A stretch of DNA of 26,644 nucleotides, taken from a virus. The stretch is taken from positions 1-26,644 of the IMG/VR virus record IMGVR_UViG_3300042402_003384; one strand, given 5' to 3'. Position numbers and translations under genes: made by a program. Of this stretch, positions 5,486 through 18,600 are shown in pieces. The notes under the pieces were generated by a model, which was given only the letters and a program-made list of their open reading frames with translations, was not told the DNA's origin and did no database searches. Within the stretch, counting starts at the first letter, position 1; every line of letters starts with the position of its first letter.

Positions 5486-6586
5486 TTAATATGTTTTAAT
5501 TAAAAAGATATATTCAGTCACATTTATTTTTCTGTCTTTCAAATTTCTACTTGCTCTATATGCTGGATAGTTTTCATCGAATACGGTTACTTCACCTTTT
5601 AATTGACAAACTTTATACATATCATCATAAGATATAAAACCTTCATTGTTATATGATATCATAATATATTTTGAATCCGTATTTTCAATCAATTTACTAA
5701 ATGCTGATAACGCTTCCTTTTGTTTATTATATAAAGATTTTTTCCAATTAGTTGGTATTCCGGCTACTTTAGAAATTTCAGATGGTTCAACATAGTCTAA
5801 GATGGTATTCAACATATGATAGTTTGAACCATATGGATGTTGATTATATGGTGGATCATAATAAACTAAATCTAAACCTTTCAACTTACTCATTAAATCG
5901 TTTGTGTCAGATTGAAAAGATTTACTTTTACAATCAAAATCACTTAGAATTATTGATTCCATAGTTATTTCACCTAATATTCTCTGTAATGCATTTTCCG
6001 CTTCTCCACCAAACTTACCCAAAGGTGATTTTTTACCTTTGTAAAATCCTTTGAATACACCAGACGTATTGTTATGTACGGATGCTTTATATAAAAGAAT
6101 TGATAAGAATATATCTTTTAAGTGTTTAGGTATTTCTAAATCAATTGTTCTTCTAATGTTATCAATAATTTTAGCGTTCTCATTAGTATAGAAACATCTT
6201 TCTCCTTCTTGTATGTTTTTTGTATCCTTAGGTGCGTATAATTTTTCTATAATACCTTCACCTAAGTCGGTACGTAATTTCTTATCATTTAGGATTTTAA
6301 CGTAATTTTTAATTTCCTCAAAATCAATTTCGTTCTTATTTTTAAGGAACGACTGATTAATGATTTTTGAATACTTCTCTAAATCATTTGTAATTAATAA
6401 AGATGCGTGTTCTTTGAAATATCGTGCGACAGCTCCAGAACCAGAAAATCCATCTACAATTAATAATTTATCTTTACCTAAGTCTTGTTTTACAATTTGA
6501 ACAACGTTATCAATAAATTTTATAAGTGATCTTTTATTTCCTAAGTATGTTATTAATTGATCTTTTAAAAAATCTTTAGTCGTCAT
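5486..6586 (-). CDS. N6-adenine DNA methyltransferase, D12 (alpha) class, partner of the EcoRI-like enzyme
   Basis: This 366-residue enzyme follows the D12/Dam-type order: ITYLGNKRSLI at about 12-22 (SAM-binding motif X), DGFSGSGAVARYF at 45-57 (motif I), an inserted recognition region, and the catalytic motif DPPY at 244-247 within YYDPPYNQHPYGSNYHML. It should methylate adenine N6 in the site cut by the neighbouring endonuclease, using S-adenosylmethionine. Its start overlaps the end of the EcoRI-like gene by 11 nt, so restriction and modification are translationally coupled, with the endonuclease gene first. No control (C) protein gene is visible to delay endonuclease synthesis. Its G+C content looks low, about 20-25 percent in sampled lines. 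Confidence 0.92.
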   Translation of the reverse strand: MTTKDFLKDQLITYLGNKRSLIKFIDNVVQIVKQDLGKDKLLIVDGFSGSGAVARYFKEHASLLITNDLEKYSKIINQSFLKNKNEIDFEEIKNYVKILNDKKLRTDLGEGIIEKLYAPKDTKNIQEGERCFYTNENAKIIDNIRRTIDLEIPKHLKDIFLSILLYKASVHNNTSGVFKGFYKGKKSPLGKFGGEAENALQRILGEITMESIILSDFDCKSKSFQSDTNDLMSKLKGLDLVYYDPPYNQHPYGSNYHMLNTILDYVEPSEISKVAGIPTNWKKSLYNKQKEALSAFSKLIENTDSKYIMISYNNEGFISYDDMYKVCQLKGEVTVFDENYPAYRASRNLKDRKINVTEYIFLIKTY

Positions 6587-7280
6587 ATTTTTTTATATAG
6601 TATTCTATCGAGTATCTCGAGATTTTATCTGTTATGTCATATATTTCCTGTCTTGACCAATCACTAGACCCCGGAGCATCGTGCATAGAATGTCCTCTCA
6701 TGAAATAGCTGCCACCTACACTATTATGTTTTTGTAATCTCATCCATTCGTAATGAATAACATTCGGTTCAGTGAAATTGAAAGTTCTTTTAATTCTATC
6801 TGGGATTGTTGATTCTAATTCATAAAAATCACAGCCCTGTAAAAAAACAACAAACGGACAGATATCTTCATCACCATAAATTAATCTTGCAACACACAAT
6901 TTATCGGCAATTCTTTCACTAGCATTACCTTGTGCTTGTTTTTCCTTTCCTTCGGTTAATCTTTTATCGTTTGTTCCTTGTCTCTTTTGTTCTGGAAATA
7001 AATAATAATGTTTTATACCCTTTATACGTATCCATGATAAACCACCATCGGGTTTTAAATAACTTTTATCATTAACTTCCGCATCAGAATCATACATTTC
7101 TTTTAATATGGTAATCGGTATTTTTTCATCAACACCAAATTCATAACCAGGATAAAGTAATTTATATTTTTCCATGATTTCATATGAAATATCTAAGATA
7201 TCGGCGTCCTGAAATTTAGATTCAATATTTTTTGCTGCGTGTTGATTAACACTATTCCTAAGTACGTTTGATTGTGACAT
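6576..7280 (-). CDS. EcoRI-family type II restriction endonuclease
   Basis: A 234-residue protein recognisable as an EcoRI relative (EcoRI has 277 residues). Matching segments in order: SYLKPDGG at 73-80 (EcoRI SSIKPDGG, catalytic Asp91, here Asp78), PEQKRQG at 96-102 (EcoRI AEAKHQG, Glu111 and Lys113, here Glu97 and Lys99), QGNASERI at 117-124 (EcoRI AGNAIERS, the DNA-contacting Asn141, Glu144 and Arg145, here Asn119, Glu122 and Arg123), and CPFVVFLQGCDF at 141-152 (EcoRI FPYVLFLEGSNF). The full active site and the residues reading the inner AATT are therefore kept, so an active enzyme cutting GAATTC or another nAATTn site is expected. The comparison is from memory of EcoRI, not an alignment run. 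It is the first gene of the four-gene restriction island, 1 nt after a DUF1360-like membrane protein gene. Confidence 0.9.
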   Translation of the reverse strand: MSQSNVLRNSVNQHAAKNIESKFQDADILDISYEIMEKYKLLYPGYEFGVDEKIPITILKEMYDSDAEVNDKSYLKPDGGLSWIRIKGIKHYYLFPEQKRQGTNDKRLTEGKEKQAQGNASERIADKLCVARLIYGDEDICPFVVFLQGCDFYELESTIPDRIKRTFNFTEPNVIHYEWMRLQKHNSVGGSYFMRGHSMHDAPGSSDWSRQEIYDITDKISRYSIEYYIKKYDD

Positions 7281-9882: not shown

Positions 9883-10824
9883 TTAATCTATTTGTTTTAT
9901 TTTATATTCACTTAAGTTTCCTTGTAAATCAGCAATATCTTTATCACCCTCTAATCTTATGCTCCACACTTTTCCCATTAATTTTCCGCAATTCAATCTG
10001 TGATATAATCGTTGTTGGTCTTCCCATGCGTCTGGATCCAATACAATAACTATTTTTTTTGCATTATTGTAGAGTTTCATAAATAAATTTTCACTCATAA
10101 ACTTTCCTAACATTGGTATGGCATTAGGAATGAAAATACTATCAAATGCACCTTCTACTATGTATATTGTTTCATCCCAATTGATTAAATGTTCGTTGAA
10201 AATAATTGTTTCCTTTTGTGCTTCGGGATTCATATATTTTCTTTTTGTCTTCTGTAAATAAGAACGTGCAATAAAATAATTTAATCTTTTATTCTCATCA
10301 TAAGATGGAATAATAATTCTACTCTCATAAAGACCAGTATAACAAAATCCAATATTGTATATCTGTAGCATCAGATCTGTGATATGTCTACTTTTAATAT
10401 AATTATAGGCCTGTTTGTATTGTGGTGTAAGTTTAAGACCCATACTTGCGTCTTTGAATGGAATAAATTCTTTTGGTAATCTTACCGGTTTATAAGTTCT
10501 TGCAGCGACTTCTTCGTCATCTTCTGGTTTTAATAAAAGATATTTCTTTAATTGCCTTGGATTACCAAACTTTTTTATTAACTTATAAATTGATCCATGT
10601 GTATTATGTGTTTCGGCGCACACCCAACATTTATAAACGCCGTATTTGTAATTGACTTCTAGATTACCTTTACCATCGCCTTGTTCCAAACCTTTAATTT
10701 CATGTGAACATACCGGACAGTCGAATGATACTTGATATCTATAATCATTGTGATTTTTATAGTCACCAAATATATCTTCTAAAATATCAAAAACTGCAGA
10801 ATAATCTACTTCTTGGGTGTTCAT
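9883..10824 (-). CDS. dnaG: DnaG-type DNA primase (zinc-finger plus TOPRIM)
   Basis: This 313-residue primase makes RNA primers for lagging-strand synthesis. An N-terminal zinc-binding domain uses Cys36, Cys39, Cys66 and Cys69 (CPVC and CWVC). The TOPRIM domain has YIVEGAFDS at 221-229 with Glu224 and IVLDPDAW at 260-267 with the DxD pair. It lacks the DnaG C-terminal helicase-binding domain, as expected of a compact phage enzyme. I start it at the ATG at 10824 (MNTQEVDYS). The frame stays open to 10896, but those 24 extra codons would run through a T-tract and a GC-rich terminator stem and encode an implausible hydrophobic lead. It heads the operon, with no Shine-Dalgarno sequence. Confidence 0.9.
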   Translation of the reverse strand: MNTQEVDYSAVFDILEDIFGDYKNHNDYRYQVSFDCPVCSHEIKGLEQGDGKGNLEVNYKYGVYKCWVCAETHNTHGSIYKLIKKFGNPRQLKKYLLLKPEDDEEVAARTYKPVRLPKEFIPFKDASMGLKLTPQYKQAYNYIKSRHITDLMLQIYNIGFCYTGLYESRIIIPSYDENKRLNYFIARSYLQKTKRKYMNPEAQKETIIFNEHLINWDETIYIVEGAFDSIFIPNAIPMLGKFMSENLFMKLYNNAKKIVIVLDPDAWEDQQRLYHRLNCGKLMGKVWSIRLEGDKDIADLQGNLSEYKIKQID

Positions 10825-10851
10825 GATAATAATATAAGAAAAAAGTATGAT

Positions 10852-10887
10852 AAAAAAAAATGGGAGCCGGACACCACGCCGACTCCC
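10852..10887 (-). terminator. Intrinsic terminator with strong GC-rich stem and T9 tract
   Basis: On the minus strand GGGAGTCGG pairs with CCGGCTCCC (10879-10887 with 10862-10870; 9 bp including one G-U) around an 8-nt loop, followed after one A by nine Ts. It ends transcription from the resolvase side or of the small structured RNA just upstream, and lies only 28 nt before the primase start codon. Confidence 0.85.
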
Positions 10888-10925
10888 TCCAACCAAACTT
10901 GTATTTCTACAAGTCCCGTCCTATT
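10862..10925 (-). ncRNA. Candidate small structured RNA or leader/attenuator upstream of the primase operon
   Basis: This stretch is strikingly GC-rich inside an AT-rich genome. The transcribed strand folds into a perfect 7-bp hairpin ACTTGTA/TACAAGT closed by a GAAA (GNRA) tetraloop at 10897-10914, preceded by GGACGGGAC and followed by the terminator hairpin and T tract. Such a tetraloop hairpin plus terminator is what a small phage RNA or a regulated leader looks like. No open reading frame is conserved through it and no tRNA fold fits. The upstream boundary and the promoter are not determined; the rest of the gap to 10977 is AT-rich with only a weak GTAAA/TTTAC hairpin. Confidence 0.5.
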
Positions 10926-10977
10926 AATAAGTATAACAATAACGACTTATAAAGTAAAACATTTACTGCCTTATATT

Positions 10978-11586
10978 TTATGACGTCTGTTTGTTCATGT
11001 TTACATAACCTATTACGCATGTTGCAGCATCGGCCATATCATAATTTTCTTTTTTAAGATTACCTGTTTTACCGTATAACCAGTTAACATCAGGACATAC
11101 GTTGTTAACGTGTTCCCATATTACATGTTTTTTATCTATGTCTTTTGGATATCCACCAAATAAAACATTCCGTCCCTTATCGTTTGGTCCAACCAAATCA
11201 GGGAAAGCAAATTTTCTTGAATTGTATGTTGAAATAAACGTCGGTAAAACCCCTAAAACATCGTAACAGTTTTTGAGTATCAATGTGTTATAACGTAATA
11301 GAGTACCAATTGTATAGATATTATTTGACTGCAACAATGGTTCTTCGATGATAACACGAAGTATCCCCATATCTTTATAATTCTCCAAATGTCTTTTAAA
11401 AGCTTCGGCTTTTAAGATTAATTCTTCGATTTTATCCTCTGGTTGTGGTTTTATTTTTGGTGAAAAATGTGTTAGCTCTAACAATTTAGAACCTGACATA
11501 TCAAACAATGCAAATCCAATGGTTTTAGTGGAGATGTCCAATCCTAAAATCTTTGGTTTGTTTTTGAAATTAATATCTATACTCAT
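10978..11586 (-). CDS. ruvC: RuvC-like Holliday junction resolvase
   Basis: A 202-residue RNase H-fold nuclease. The N-terminal strand ILGLDISTKTIGFALFD carries catalytic Asp17, VIIEEP at 78-83 provides the glutamate (81 or 82), and YDMADAATCVIGY at 182-194 supplies the last acidic pair (Asp183 and Asp186), the same order and spacing as RuvC. It should cut four-way junctions formed by recombination-dependent replication before packaging, the job done by the unrelated endonuclease VII (gp49) in T4. Only these motifs are conserved, so a RuvC-fold nuclease with another substrate is possible. It stands between the virion genes and the replication operon, with terminators on its downstream side. 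Confidence 0.8.
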   Translation of the reverse strand: MSIDINFKNKPKILGLDISTKTIGFALFDMSGSKLLELTHFSPKIKPQPEDKIEELILKAEAFKRHLENYKDMGILRVIIEEPLLQSNNIYTIGTLLRYNTLILKNCYDVLGVLPTFISTYNSRKFAFPDLVGPNDKGRNVLFGGYPKDIDKKHVIWEHVNNVCPDVNWLYGKTGNLKKENYDMADAATCVIGYVNMNKQTS

Positions 11587-13933: not shown

Positions 13934-14944
13934 TTATACTTGTTCTAATTTAGCTTGTGCAACAGTTAATGAACCGTCGGAAATTGCACTTACATCCCAA
14001 TTTGTTACGGTATGTACCCCAACAGGTAACGTAAATGTTGTAAATGAAGCATTTCCTTCTCCCGTACCACTTAAAGGTGACGCACCCTGACCTGCAAAAT
14101 CTGGTGAAATTGAACTTCCGTTAACATCTATTGTGGTGTCTGCTCTATAACCAGTGACAACCCAAGTTTTTAATTTTATAGTTACCGTGTCATATGTGAC
14201 AGTAATGGTGGTTCCGCTTGTTTCTGTTGTTGTTCCCGCACCACTTGACCTACTTGCACTAATTGTAGATCTTGAAAAAGTGGCAACTCCTCCGCAACCC
14301 ATAAATCCTGTTGATATGATCGCGTATAGTGTTCCTCCTGGATTTGTTGTTGTATTTACACCTGTAACTACCCATACGTTACCCGGTGATGTGACTTTTT
14401 CATCAATTGCAAATTGACCTTCAGGATATTCTTCTGAATATGCGACAGAACTATCAGAGCAATTGGTTAATTGATACCAAATACTTATCGGAGTTGATGT
14501 TGGTGTTGGTGGTGGTGGTGTTGATGTTGGGGTTGGTGATACCGTTGTACTGGTTGGCGTAGGGGTTGATGTTGATACAATAGGTGTACTAGTTGGTGTA
14601 GGTGGTATAGGTGTACTAGATGGTGTTGGTGTGGGGGTTGGTGTCGATGTTGGACTAGGTGTAGGGGTTGCCGGTAATCCATTGATTGGTAACATTTGAA
14701 ATGGTTTAGGGTCACAACTACCCGGAACCACTCTATCCGCCTCAACATAAATGTAATTTATACTATAAAGAGTTAATCCCGTAACATATAATCCATTACC
14801 ATTAAAACTATCATGTGGTACATTTTGATAATTAGATAATACCGTACAACTATTTTTATTGCTCGTTGTACATCCAGATAAATTAAAACTTAATAAAGAA
14901 TTACCTCTGTCACCTAATTTTACATATGTATTAAATAAACTCAT
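13934..14944 (-). CDS. Virion surface protein with Thr/Pro linker (receptor-binding candidate)
   Basis: A 336-residue protein with an N-terminal domain (about 1-90, ending SCDPKPFQM), a linker of about 62 residues made of TPTPTSTP-type units, and a C-terminal part with a Cys-containing module beginning WYQLTNCSD and a beta-rich end. The N-terminal domain resembles the first 72 residues of the next gene upstream (ending NCTDTKPWSV), so the two are probable paralogues. The linker shares codons with the giant gene at 15601-20559. A function at the tail tip, such as host binding, is plausible but not shown. It has its own late-type promoter box and follows a terminator. Confidence 0.65.
   Translation of the reverse strand: MSLFNTYVKLGDRGNSLLSFNLSGCTTSNKNSCTVLSNYQNVPHDSFNGNGLYVTGLTLYSINYIYVEADRVVPGSCDPKPFQMLPINGLPATPTPSPTSTPTPTPTPSSTPIPPTPTSTPIVSTSTPTPTSTTVSPTPTSTPPPPTPTSTPISIWYQLTNCSDSSVAYSEEYPEGQFAIDEKVTSPGNVWVVTGVNTTTNPGGTLYAIISTGFMGCGGVATFSRSTISASRSSGAGTTTETSGTTITVTYDTVTIKLKTWVVTGYRADTTIDVNGSSISPDFAGQGASPLSGTGEGNASFTTFTLPVGVHTVTNWDVSAISDGSLTVAQAKLEQV
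14487..14675 (-). repeat. Thr/Pro-coding low-complexity repeat in the 336-residue protein
   Basis: Degenerate in-frame 6-nt and longer repeats (ACACCAACACC types) encode TPTPTSTP. The segment is built from the same codon strings as the larger array at 16303-17525, including ACTAGTACACC for TSTP. Confidence 0.85.
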
Positions 14945-14948
14945 ATTC

Positions 14949-14956
14949 TATAAATA
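14949..14956 (-). promoter_or_regulatory. Putative late promoter box (TATTTATA) before the 336-residue protein
   Basis: Coding-strand TATTTATA, 4 nt before the ATG at 14944 and about 20 nt behind the terminator at 14979-15004, as expected if a new transcript starts here. Confidence 0.55.
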
Positions 14957-14978
14957 GTATTATATAGAATTTAAATAA

Positions 14979-15004
14979 AAAACCCCTTATAATAAAGGGG
15001 TTTT
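14979..15004 (-). terminator. Intrinsic terminator after the 177-residue linker protein
   Basis: A 10-bp stem (AAAACCCCTT with AAGGGGTTTT) around a 6-nt loop, continuing on the minus strand into a T6 run and further AT-rich DNA. It lies 23 nt beyond the stop at 15028. Confidence 0.85.
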
Positions 15005-15027
15005 AATATTGTTATATTTTTTTATAT

Positions 15028-15561
15028 TTAACATGCTTCAATTGCCGATGTAATATAACCACTAGCACTAGCTATTTCACCTGAAACTCTTTGACTTTCT
15101 GAATCAACATCTCGTTTCCAACTATAATAACCTCCACCGCTGAGTCCTGATGTTAAACTTGAATCGGTAAAGAATCTAGTGACACTAGTTCTCGTTTGTT
15201 CCGCAGCCCATACTTCACTTGGTAGTGCTGTTGTAAAATAACTACACGCATCCGATATAGTTGTACGACTATCTGGTGTGATATTATATAGATAACTTAC
15301 CACCGTAGGTGTTGGTGGTATAGGGGTTGGTGTTGGGTTAGGGGTCACACTCCATGGTTTTGTATCCGTACAATTACCTGTACTTGCAATTGTACCTCCC
15401 GTTATTGTTTCGTATTCAGTGTCTACAGGATGACCATTAGTTAGTTGTGTTCTAGTAACTCCAGTGGCTATCCAATAAGTTACATTACTACTTGTTGTTC
15501 CTGAAATGTTAAACGGACCCACATCCGTCGATGTTGTTGTTATTGTAAATGTTATTCTCAT
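15028..15561 (-). CDS. Small virion protein with short Thr/Pro linker and C-terminal Cys module
   Basis: A 177-residue protein. Residues 1-72 form a beta-rich N-terminal domain related to that of the 336-residue neighbour (FNISGTTS versus FNLSGCTTS, NCTDTKPW versus SCDPKPF). A very short linker [12 protein letters not shown] follows, then a C-terminal module running from SYLYNITPD through DACSYF and FFTDSSLTSGLSGGGYYSW to a final Cys. The same order (aromatic start, Cys, FTxxxL, GGxxF/Y, final Cys) is seen after the long linker of the giant protein at 15601-20559. This suggests interchangeable tip modules on a shared plan. It has its own late-type promoter box and terminator, so it forms a single-gene unit. 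Function unknown; receptor binding is inference. Confidence 0.65.
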   Translation of the reverse strand: MRITFTITTTSTDVGPFNISGTTSSNVTYWIATGVTRTQLTNGHPVDTEYETITGGTIASTGNCTDTKPWSVTPNPTPTPIPPTPTVVSYLYNITPDSRTTISDACSYFTTALPSEVWAAEQTRTSVTRFFTDSSLTSGLSGGGYYSWKRDVDSESQRVSGEIASASGYITSAIEAC

Positions 15562-15577
15562 ATATTTTGTTTCTTTT

Positions 15578-15585
15578 TATAAATA
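15578..15585 (-). promoter_or_regulatory. Putative late promoter box (TATTTATA) before the 177-residue protein
   Basis: Coding-strand TATTTATA, 16 nt before the ATG at 15561, in the 39-nt gap after the giant gene. One of five identical octamers. Confidence 0.5.
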
Positions 15586-15600
15586 TCTGTTTATTTTATT

Positions 15601-18600
15601 TTATGTTCCACCACCAGCACAAGCTTGTGTGCAATTATCATAAGGTCCATCAAATGGATATAATAGTGGTACCACTACACCAGGATCTGTTGTTGCACTT
15701 ATTATCATAAATACACTTGGATTATCTGTCCAGCTGTAAAATTTACTTGAAAGTGATACGGTAGATCCGACTGGAAACGCAACAATTTGATTAGAAGCAC
15801 TTTCACCACAAGGCTCCGCACAACCATATTGATCAGCCAAATAGTAGTCATATCCTGAACCTGTTTCGGTTGAAGTTGGAGTTGGATCAGGTACTGGTGT
15901 ACTAGTTGGTGGTGGTGCAGGTGTTGCTGTTGGATCTGGTACTGGTGTACTAGTTGGTGGTGGTACTGGTGTTGACGTTGGATCTGGTACTGGTGTTGAC
16001 GTTGGATCTGGTACTGGTGTACTAGTTGGTACTGGTGTAGGACAAGCCACACAAGTTCCGTGTTGCTCAAATGTAGTACTTGTTGATCCACCATATTGTT
16101 GTACTTCTCTTGATATTGAACCGTCACTTATAAAAAATACCCCACCGTAATCTAATAATGGTAATAAATTATTTGTAAAGTTTGTTGCCGTACAGAAATC
16201 ACTAGTGTTTCCTATCACCGTAAATTGGTATCCAACTCCATATTCTGTATTACCACCAGCACATGCTACCGCTCCCGATGTATCACTAAAATACAAGAAG
16301 AAAGTAAATGTTGGTGTTGGTGTGGGGGTAGGGGTTGGTGTTGGTGGTATATCTGTTGCGGTTGGTGTAGGAGTAGGTGGTACATCCGTAGGTGTTGGTA
16401 CTGGCGTATCTGTTGGTGTTGCGGTTGGTGGTATAGGTGTACTAGTTGGTGTAGGAGTAGGAGTAGGAATTGGTGTCTCTGTTGATGTTGGAGTTGGCGG
16501 TACTGGTGTACTAGTTGGTGTTGGAGTTGAAGTACTAGTTGGAGTTGGTGGTACCGGTGTACTAGTTGGTGTTGGGGTTGAAGTACTAGTTGGAGTTGGT
16601 GGTACCGGTGTACTAGTTGGTGTTGGGGTTGGACTAGTAGTTGATGTCGGAGTTGGTGTTGCAAATGTTATGTCTACTTCAATATCAAATACACAATTAG
16701 GTGTTGCGGTTGGTGGTATAGAAGTACTAGTTGGTGTAGGGGTAGGAGTTGAAGTACTAGTAGGTGTTGGTGTAGGTGTTGGTGTTGACACAATAGGTGT
16801 ACTAGTTGGTGTAGGAGTTGCCGTTGGTACTATTGGTGTACTAGTTGGGGTTGGTGTTGCAAATGTTATATCTACTTCAATATCAAATACACAATTAGGT
16901 GTAGCTGTTGGTACTATAGGTGTGCTAGTTGGGGTCGGTTGTATAGGGGTACTAGTTGGTGTAGGGGTTGGTGTAGGAGTAGCGGTTACAATATCTACGG
17001 TAACATCAAACACACAATTAGGTGTTGCTGTTGGTTGTATAGGGGTACTAGTTGGTGTAGGGGTTGGTGTTGGGGTTGCGGTTACAATGTCCACGCCAAT
17101 ATCAAATACACAATTAGGTGTCGCTGTTGGTTGTATAGGAGTACTAGTTGGTGTAGGTGTTGGTGTAGGTGTTGCGGTTACAATATCCACGGTAACATCA
17201 AATACACAGTTAGGTGTTGGTGGTATAGAAGTACTAGTTGGTGTAGGGGTGGCAGTTACGATGTCTACACCAATATCAAACACACAATTAGGTGTTGGGG
17301 TTGGGGTAACAATTTGAGCGGAAACATCAAATACACAATTAGGTGTTGCTGTTGGTTGTATAGGTGTGCTAGTTGGTGTAGGTGTAGGGGTTGAAGTGCT
17401 AGTTGGGGTTGGTGGGATAGGGGTACTAGTTGGTGTAGGAGTAGGAGTTGGTGTAGGTGGTATAGGTGTGCTAGTTGGCGTAGGTGTAGGGGTTGGGGTA
17501 CTAGTCGGTGTAGGTGTTGGTCCTTCAAAATATGTCGCTGTACCTCCAGTAAACGTACAATCATAAATGTCGGTAAATGGTCTAGCATTTAAATCTAAGA
17601 AAATTTCATTATTACAATCATTAGGACCGTATTTAAATGATGTTAATTTTATTTTTTCATTTCCTTCATTATCTGTAAAAATATTTACTGTTAAAAGTTT
17701 TCTTCTAACTTTAGTTGGTGTTAATGTAATTCCAGTGGCTCCCGTAAATGGTGCATATGAACTTATATAACCATAATTGTCAACGGTTAAACCTGAATAT
17801 TCACAATCTGTACATGTATTAATATACGTTACTGTATTCAATAATGCGACTTTCCATAATTCTTTTATTTTATCGTAATCTGCCATTACCGTATTACCTG
17901 AAATGATTGTTGCATAATCACTTCCCGAACCATCGTCTTGAAATAATTTTGCACTATTTGAACTATTAGTTTTACCGGATACAATTACATATGTTAATCC
18001 GGTAACTGACGAAGTATTTCCTGTTGTTCCAGAATAAAAATTTCCATTTATTTCAAATGTTGGAAATATTAATATATTCCCATCGTACTTATATTCTCCT
18101 AATTCATTTACCTCTTCACGAATAATGTTATCATATTCATCAATGACATCTTCAAAATATTGATTATATCCACTTGGTATTTCAGGATATAAATTGTCAA
18201 CAATTTCAATAGGTTGACATCCGTATTTGTATTGATACTTTGGTCTACCAAAAATATTGTTTGAGATTAAATTACCTCCCGTCCATAATGTTGTTGATGG
18301 TATAATTTGATCTACGACACTCGTCCAATATGGACTCATTTTTTCGATGAATAAATTAATATCGGGGAAAGTATAAGGTACAAAATCTGTTCGTGATATG
18401 TAGTCTTGATATATGTCTTCTAATGTAATATAATTTTTTCTATATTTTACCACATTTGAATTTCTGATTTGTTGATGTAGCATTAAATCAACGTATTCCG
18501 CAAACGTAACTCCCGTTTGCGGTAATAAACTATTTGTACCAAAAGTTGTTCCCGTAGGTCCATTATCTCTTGACTTACGATATATGTCATAATCAACACC

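What the first reader, a model, noticed from the sequence alone, without database searches (positions are those of the whole stretch)
10862..10925. GC-rich structured RNA with GAAA-capped hairpin and terminator before the primase operon
In an AT-rich genome this short segment has a perfect 7-bp stem with a GNRA tetraloop, a GGACGGGAC lead and a strong terminator stem with T9. It ends 28 nt before the primase ATG. It could be a small phage RNA or an attenuator controlling about 10 kb of replication and restriction genes; GGACG could pair with UGUCC in the terminator as a weak alternative fold.
Basis: partly seen in the sequence, partly recalled or inferred. Interest (0 to 1): 0.62.

Follow-up and report, generated by a model that had tools for sequence, protein, structure and literature searches.

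The report
Conserved phage small RNA beside primase
A family of large viruses, probably of Bacteroidota, carries one copy of a roughly 65-letter, two-hairpin small RNA gene just in front of its DNA primase gene; its shape and key letters are very strongly conserved, the RNA is in no RNA-family database searched, and it shares a signature with RNA ends of unrelated phages and of one bacterial gene family, which suggests a common but still unidentified binding partner.

Summary
On the minus strand (about 10921 to 10853) lies a two-hairpin RNA ending in a strong intrinsic terminator. All 61 viral contigs whose primase is at least 61% identical carry it at the same place, one copy per genome. Across 45 distinct sequences 97.7% of stem cells pair and 214 cells show double changes (0 of 500 shuffles reach this), so it is a genuine structured RNA. 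Rfam has no match. The linker GUUGG and the terminator loop GUGGUG stay nearly fixed while both stems change freely. A promoter-like box precedes all 45 copies; a second lies just before the primase start. The proposed alternative fold exists in 3 of 45 members and costs about 15 kcal/mol, so the attenuator reading is not supported; the small phage RNA reading is. Unexpectedly, GUUGG plus a GUGGUG-loop terminator recurs in unrelated phages (17 of 60 non-clade hits have a stem, about five groups; scrambled-loop control 0 of 38) and in the 3' untranslated region of one secreted gene family of Bacteroidota. Most likely it is an independent phage small RNA that binds a factor in trans. Partner, target and function are unknown; no transcript data were available.

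The parts
10926..10958 (-). Promoter-like region of the small RNA: TTTTACTTTA, about 17 nt, TATACTTATTAATA
   Evidence: TAT box conserved 7-16 nt before the RNA in 45 of 45 distinct members; alignment A2; listed by the promoter scan as TTTACT-17-TATACT. Not tested by experiment.
10853..10921 (-). Small RNA (covariance-model match, 88.8 bits)
   Evidence: covariation
10891..10920 (-). Hairpin I: GAC/GUU base, conserved G x R mismatch, tandem G.U pairs, variable stem, variable loop (GAAA here)
10889..10893 (-). Linker GUUGG, nearly invariant; its GUU closes the base of hairpin I and GG is unpaired
10862..10887 (-). Hairpin II: intrinsic terminator stem, fully covarying, loop containing GUGGUGU (invariant in the first 32 aligned; GUGGUG core in nearly all later ones)
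10852..10860 (-). T9 tract of the terminator
10824..10840 (-). Separate TATATT-type box a few bases before the primase ATG (probable primase promoter, leaderless or nearly so)
   Evidence: box present in 45 of 45 members; genome-wide TATTTAT box peaks about 11-15 nt before ATG
9883..10824 (-). DNA primase (DnaG type), always the next gene downstream
   Evidence: PHROG 47, E 1.6e-40
10978..11586 (-). RuvC-like resolvase, gene upstream; about 0.9 kb is inserted between it and the RNA in some relatives
   Evidence: PHROG 159, E 1.7e-5; L029, L042, L379

Best explanation
An independent small RNA gene of a clade of large phages (probably of Bacteroidota). It is transcribed from its own promoter, starts near GGACGGG, folds into two hairpins and ends at its own intrinsic terminator, giving an RNA of about 60-70 nt (inferred from sequence). 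It acts in trans, not on the adjacent primase: the conserved base of hairpin I, the linker GUUGG and the terminator loop GUGGUG together form a recognition surface for a protein or RNA partner in the infected cell (inferred). Because the same GUUGG plus GUGGUG-loop terminator occurs at RNA 3' ends of unrelated phages and of one host gene family, the partner is most likely a host factor that recognises such 3' ends, for example an RNA-binding protein that stabilises or presents small RNAs in bacteria that mostly lack Hfq. Shown: structure, conservation, position, recurrence of the motif. Inferred: transcription, trans action, partner.
For: Present upstream of primase in all 61 contigs with primase at least 61% identical, absent at that place in 19 more distant ones. 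Later collection-wide scans found further members: 69 of 73 and 64 of 65 hits, and wherever primase was on the fetched stretch it followed the RNA. One strong copy per record in 28 phage records. 97.7% of cells paired against 69.6% shuffled; covariation score 0.741 against 0.214, 0 of 500. Conserved G.U wobbles argue for function as RNA on this strand. Loop and linker held while stems change. Promoter-like box in 45/45 and separate primase box in 45/45. In four large phage contigs it is the only one of 19-67 terminator-like sites with GUUGG upstream and a GUGGUG loop, so it is not the phage's ordinary terminator style. Motif recurrence with control: 17/60 against 0/38; host 3'UTR element.
Against: No transcript data exist here, so the promoter, 5' end and size are predictions. 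No target or partner is identified. Complements of the loop and linker are not enriched at phage gene starts and the full loop complement is absent from one Bacteroidota genome's rRNA region. The host of the phage is not known; Bacteroidota is inferred from promoter boxes and relatives. The host resemblance covers only the 3' half and one gene family; allowing for the size of the search, my rough estimate of one such event by chance is several per cent. A stricter motif pattern found no stem-bearing chromosomal copy in 395 Bacteroidota genomes.
Confidence: 0.5

Rival explanations
1. Antisense small RNA: the invariant loop GUGGUGU and linker GUUGG are seeds that base-pair with host (or phage) mRNAs and change their translation.
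For: An invariant loop on a changing stem is the usual look of a seed; promoter-like box and terminator; known phage small RNAs such as PreS of lambda work this way (review PMC12197685).
Against: Complementary words are not enriched, and mostly depleted, at phage gene starts in four contigs. Host unknown, so host mRNAs could not be tested. The same loop in unrelated phages and a host 3'UTR fits a shared binder at least as well as a shared target.
Confidence: 0.25
2. Cis-acting leader of the primase operon: attenuator, riboswitch or put-like antitermination element that controls read-through into primase.
For: Always directly upstream of primase and in the same orientation; it ends in a terminator.
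Against: No conserved antiterminator; the proposed alternative fold is possible in 3 of 45 and 15 kcal/mol weaker. Terminator arms change completely while the 5' part is fixed. Primase has its own promoter-like box after the terminator in 45/45.
Confidence: 0.12
3. A special 3'-end or terminator module only: it ends upstream transcripts (RuvC operon) and protects or processes their 3' ends; the transcript itself has no further role.
For: In phage groups B and C and in the host family the motif sits directly at gene 3' ends; it has a strong terminator.
Against: In this clade a conserved promoter-like region lies between the RuvC stop and the RNA, and hairpin I with conserved G.U pairs is more than a terminator needs. 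Other terminators of the same phages lack the motif.
Confidence: 0.13

Closest known systems
Phage small RNAs with own promoter and terminator (PreS of lambda, OOP RNA, VpdS; review PMC12197685)
   Same: Short intergenic phage transcript with terminator; PreS acts on replication (dnaN).
   Different: No sequence relation examined; PreS needs Hfq; OOP is antisense to its neighbour, while this RNA is on the same strand as its neighbours and no target is known.
FopS/GibS small RNAs of Bacteroides bound by RbpB (PMC11697453)
   Same: Bacteroidota small RNA with terminator hairpin; a model for a protein partner in these bacteria.
   Different: FopS has a single-stranded 5' seed and one hairpin; the Rfam scan gave only a GibS match far below cut-off and on the other strand.
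HK022 put antitermination RNA
   Same: Two hairpins close together in a phage transcript (from memory).
   Different: put is read through and acts on downstream terminators; this element itself ends in a terminator.
3'UTR element of a secreted ~200-aa paralog family in Flavobacteriaceae-type genomes (found here)
   Same: GUUUAGUUGGU, then terminator with UGUGGUG loop, covarying stem, U-run.
   Different: Lacks the CGG lead and hairpin I; attached to a protein gene; no Pfam domain.

Membership tests
Any Rfam family | Score at or above the curated cut-off | tested here: not met
   0 matches in the window at gathering score; only sub-threshold matches with permissive search
Structured RNA | Compensatory changes that keep stems beyond chance | tested here: met
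Independent phage small RNA | Own conserved promoter and terminator | tested here: inconclusive
   Promoter-like box 45/45 and terminator present, but consensus boxes are not proof of transcription
Independent phage small RNA | Discrete transcript during infection | not testable with these tools
   No RNA data held
Transcription attenuator | Conserved mutually exclusive antiterminator fold | tested here: not met
   3 of 45; -15.6 against -31.1 kcal/mol
Antisense small RNA on phage mRNAs | Complementary sites near target starts | tested here: not met
   (simple word counts and ungapped pairing on four contigs)
Antisense small RNA on host mRNAs | Conserved complementary host sites | not tested
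   Host unknown
Replication origin element | GC-skew switch at the element | tested here: not met
   Skew follows gene direction; the RNA lies inside a long co-directional block

The most novel reading that the evidence does not exclude
The pair 'GUUGG plus terminator hairpin with a GUGGUG loop' is a general RNA signature of Bacteroidota phages and some of their hosts, read by an unknown RNA-binding factor in bacteria that mostly lack Hfq, and this phage RNA is a dedicated decoy or hijacker of that factor.
Probability: 0.25. Interest if true: 0.85.

Novelty: new variant of a known kind. Interest (0 to 1): 0.62.

Why it matters
It is a strongly constrained small RNA, apparently undescribed in Rfam and in the literature searched, in a widespread group of environmental large phages, and its signature recurs in unrelated phages and in a bacterial 3' end. 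If the signature is a binding site, it gives a direct handle (a bait RNA with defined mutants) for finding an RNA-binding factor in a phylum whose small-RNA machinery is little known.

Tried and rejected
Attenuator fold; G-quadruplex fold (not favoured); phage mRNA antisense targets; full-length loop complement in rRNA; replication origin by GC skew; tRNA/tmRNA; second copies elsewhere in the same genomes (only weak chance-level hits); GenBank phages: no DNA match of the region and no RNA in five related records, including Flavobacterium phage immuto and a Lak phage; a loose pattern scan of prokaryote genomes was saturated by chance hits. Pairing of the loop with the primase start codons was considered by eye: ACACC occurs in many members but is missing in others, so rejected. 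A wide first pattern scan was too loose to be useful.

Full report
What was checked. The window is a 26.6 kb virus record. The finding lies on the minus strand between a RuvC-like gene (10978-11586) and a DnaG-type primase (9883-10824), followed by an exonuclease, an SbcD-like gene and, further on, restriction-modification genes. The sequence is as described: GC-rich RNA, hairpin with GAAA loop, strong terminator with T9, 28 nt before the primase ATG.

Relatives. A search with the primase brought 80 loci from viral contigs. The 61 with 61-100% primase identity carry the RNA immediately upstream of the primase; the 19 with about 47-54% identity do not. Two later scans of the whole viral collection with RNA patterns returned almost only this family (69 of 73; 64 of 65), and wherever the primase was on the fetched stretch it lay just downstream. 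The gene before the RNA can differ: some relatives have about 0.9 kb inserted after RuvC. A covariance model built from 32 sequences finds a single strong copy in each of 28 carrier records, the longest 336 kb, and none above noise in the distant relatives. About 67 distinct RNA sequences were seen in the end by a simple pattern.

Structure. All 45 sequences folded singly give the same two hairpins, with small variations at the base of hairpin I. Hairpin I has a 3-bp base (RAC with GUU), a conserved G by G/A mismatch, two conserved G.U pairs, a variable stem and a variable loop. Hairpin II is the terminator: its arms change completely, including exchanges of the G-rich and C-rich arm, but the loop keeps GUGGUG. 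On the 45-row alignment 97.7% of cells pair (shuffled 69.6%), 214 cells carry a change on both sides (shuffled 65), and the covariation score is 0.741 (shuffled 0.214, 0 of 500); sliding the partners by one column destroys this. The alignment was fitted to part of this structure, which favours it somewhat, but the arm exchanges are visible by eye. Rfam has no match.

Transcription signals. A TATA(T/C)T box lies 7-16 nt before the RNA in 45 of 45, and another lies shortly before the primase ATG in 45 of 45. The second pattern was permissive. Flavobacteria use TAnnTTTG boxes (PMC9723704). In four large phage contigs TATTTAT boxes peak about 11-15 nt before ATG codons, which suggests many leaderless messages. 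These are consensus boxes, not measured promoters.

How it may work. A cis attenuator is unlikely: there is no conserved alternative fold, and the primase seems to have its own promoter. Complements of the conserved words are not enriched at phage gene starts and the rRNA region of one Bacteroidota genome gives no full loop complement. A trans-acting RNA with a conserved recognition surface is the simplest reading.

A wider signature. Scanning Bacteroidota genomes with the model gave weak hits, many of which turned out to share the linker and the loop: the 3'UTR of one secreted protein family, often in tandem copies, reads GUUUAGUUGGU, then a terminator with UGUGGUG loop and a covarying stem. 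A pattern scan of viral contigs then found the same pair in phages outside the clade: group B, before a portal gene (10 loci); group C, in a head-tail operon (4 loci); and single cases L598, L643 and L647. With the loop TGTGGTG, 17 of 60 non-clade hits place the loop on a stem; with the scrambled loop TGGTGTG, 0 of 38. Many of the 17 are near-identical, so they amount to about five independent groups. Group C and L647 resemble Bacteroides and Flavobacterium phages by protein; the host of group B is unclear. A stricter pattern in 395 Bacteroidota genomes gave no stem-bearing hit, so the signature is not common on chromosomes. In the four phage contigs it is unique among 19-67 terminator-like sites.

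Limits. No expression data, no host, no partner. The contig records are mostly incomplete. The wider signature was found by following weak hits, so it should be treated as a lead; the scrambled-loop control is one control only and its hits include 13 clade members that were set aside. Literature search found no description of this RNA or loop, but the library is partial.

Noticed in passing
L476-L481, L484-L487, L508-L511, L541: In Flavobacteriaceae-type genomes a family of secreted ~200-aa proteins without a Pfam domain, often in tandem, has a 3'UTR of about 60 nt that is far better conserved than the coding part.
   Followed up: partly
G004, G005, G010, G011 (large phage contigs): A TATTTAT(A) box sits about 5 nt before many ATG codons (97 cases in the -15 to -11 bin), suggesting a phage-wide promoter type with leaderless messages.
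   Followed up: partly
L665, L677: Upstream of a GUUGG/GUGGUG-type terminator lies TCTAC...TAAGTGTAGAT, which resembles the end of Cas12a repeats from memory; could be chance.
   Followed up: no
window 5486-7280, minus strand: Weak EcoRI-like protein (just under the Pfam cut-off) next to a D12-class adenine methyltransferase: a possible restriction-modification pair downstream of the phage replication genes.
   Followed up: no
window 14485-17590: Long [10 protein letters not shown]-type repeats in tail or surface proteins, giving long open frames on the other strand.
   Followed up: no
L473: The recA-like gene end in one Bacteroidota genome also has GUUUGGUUGG directly before its terminator, but without the GUGGUG loop.
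   Followed up: no
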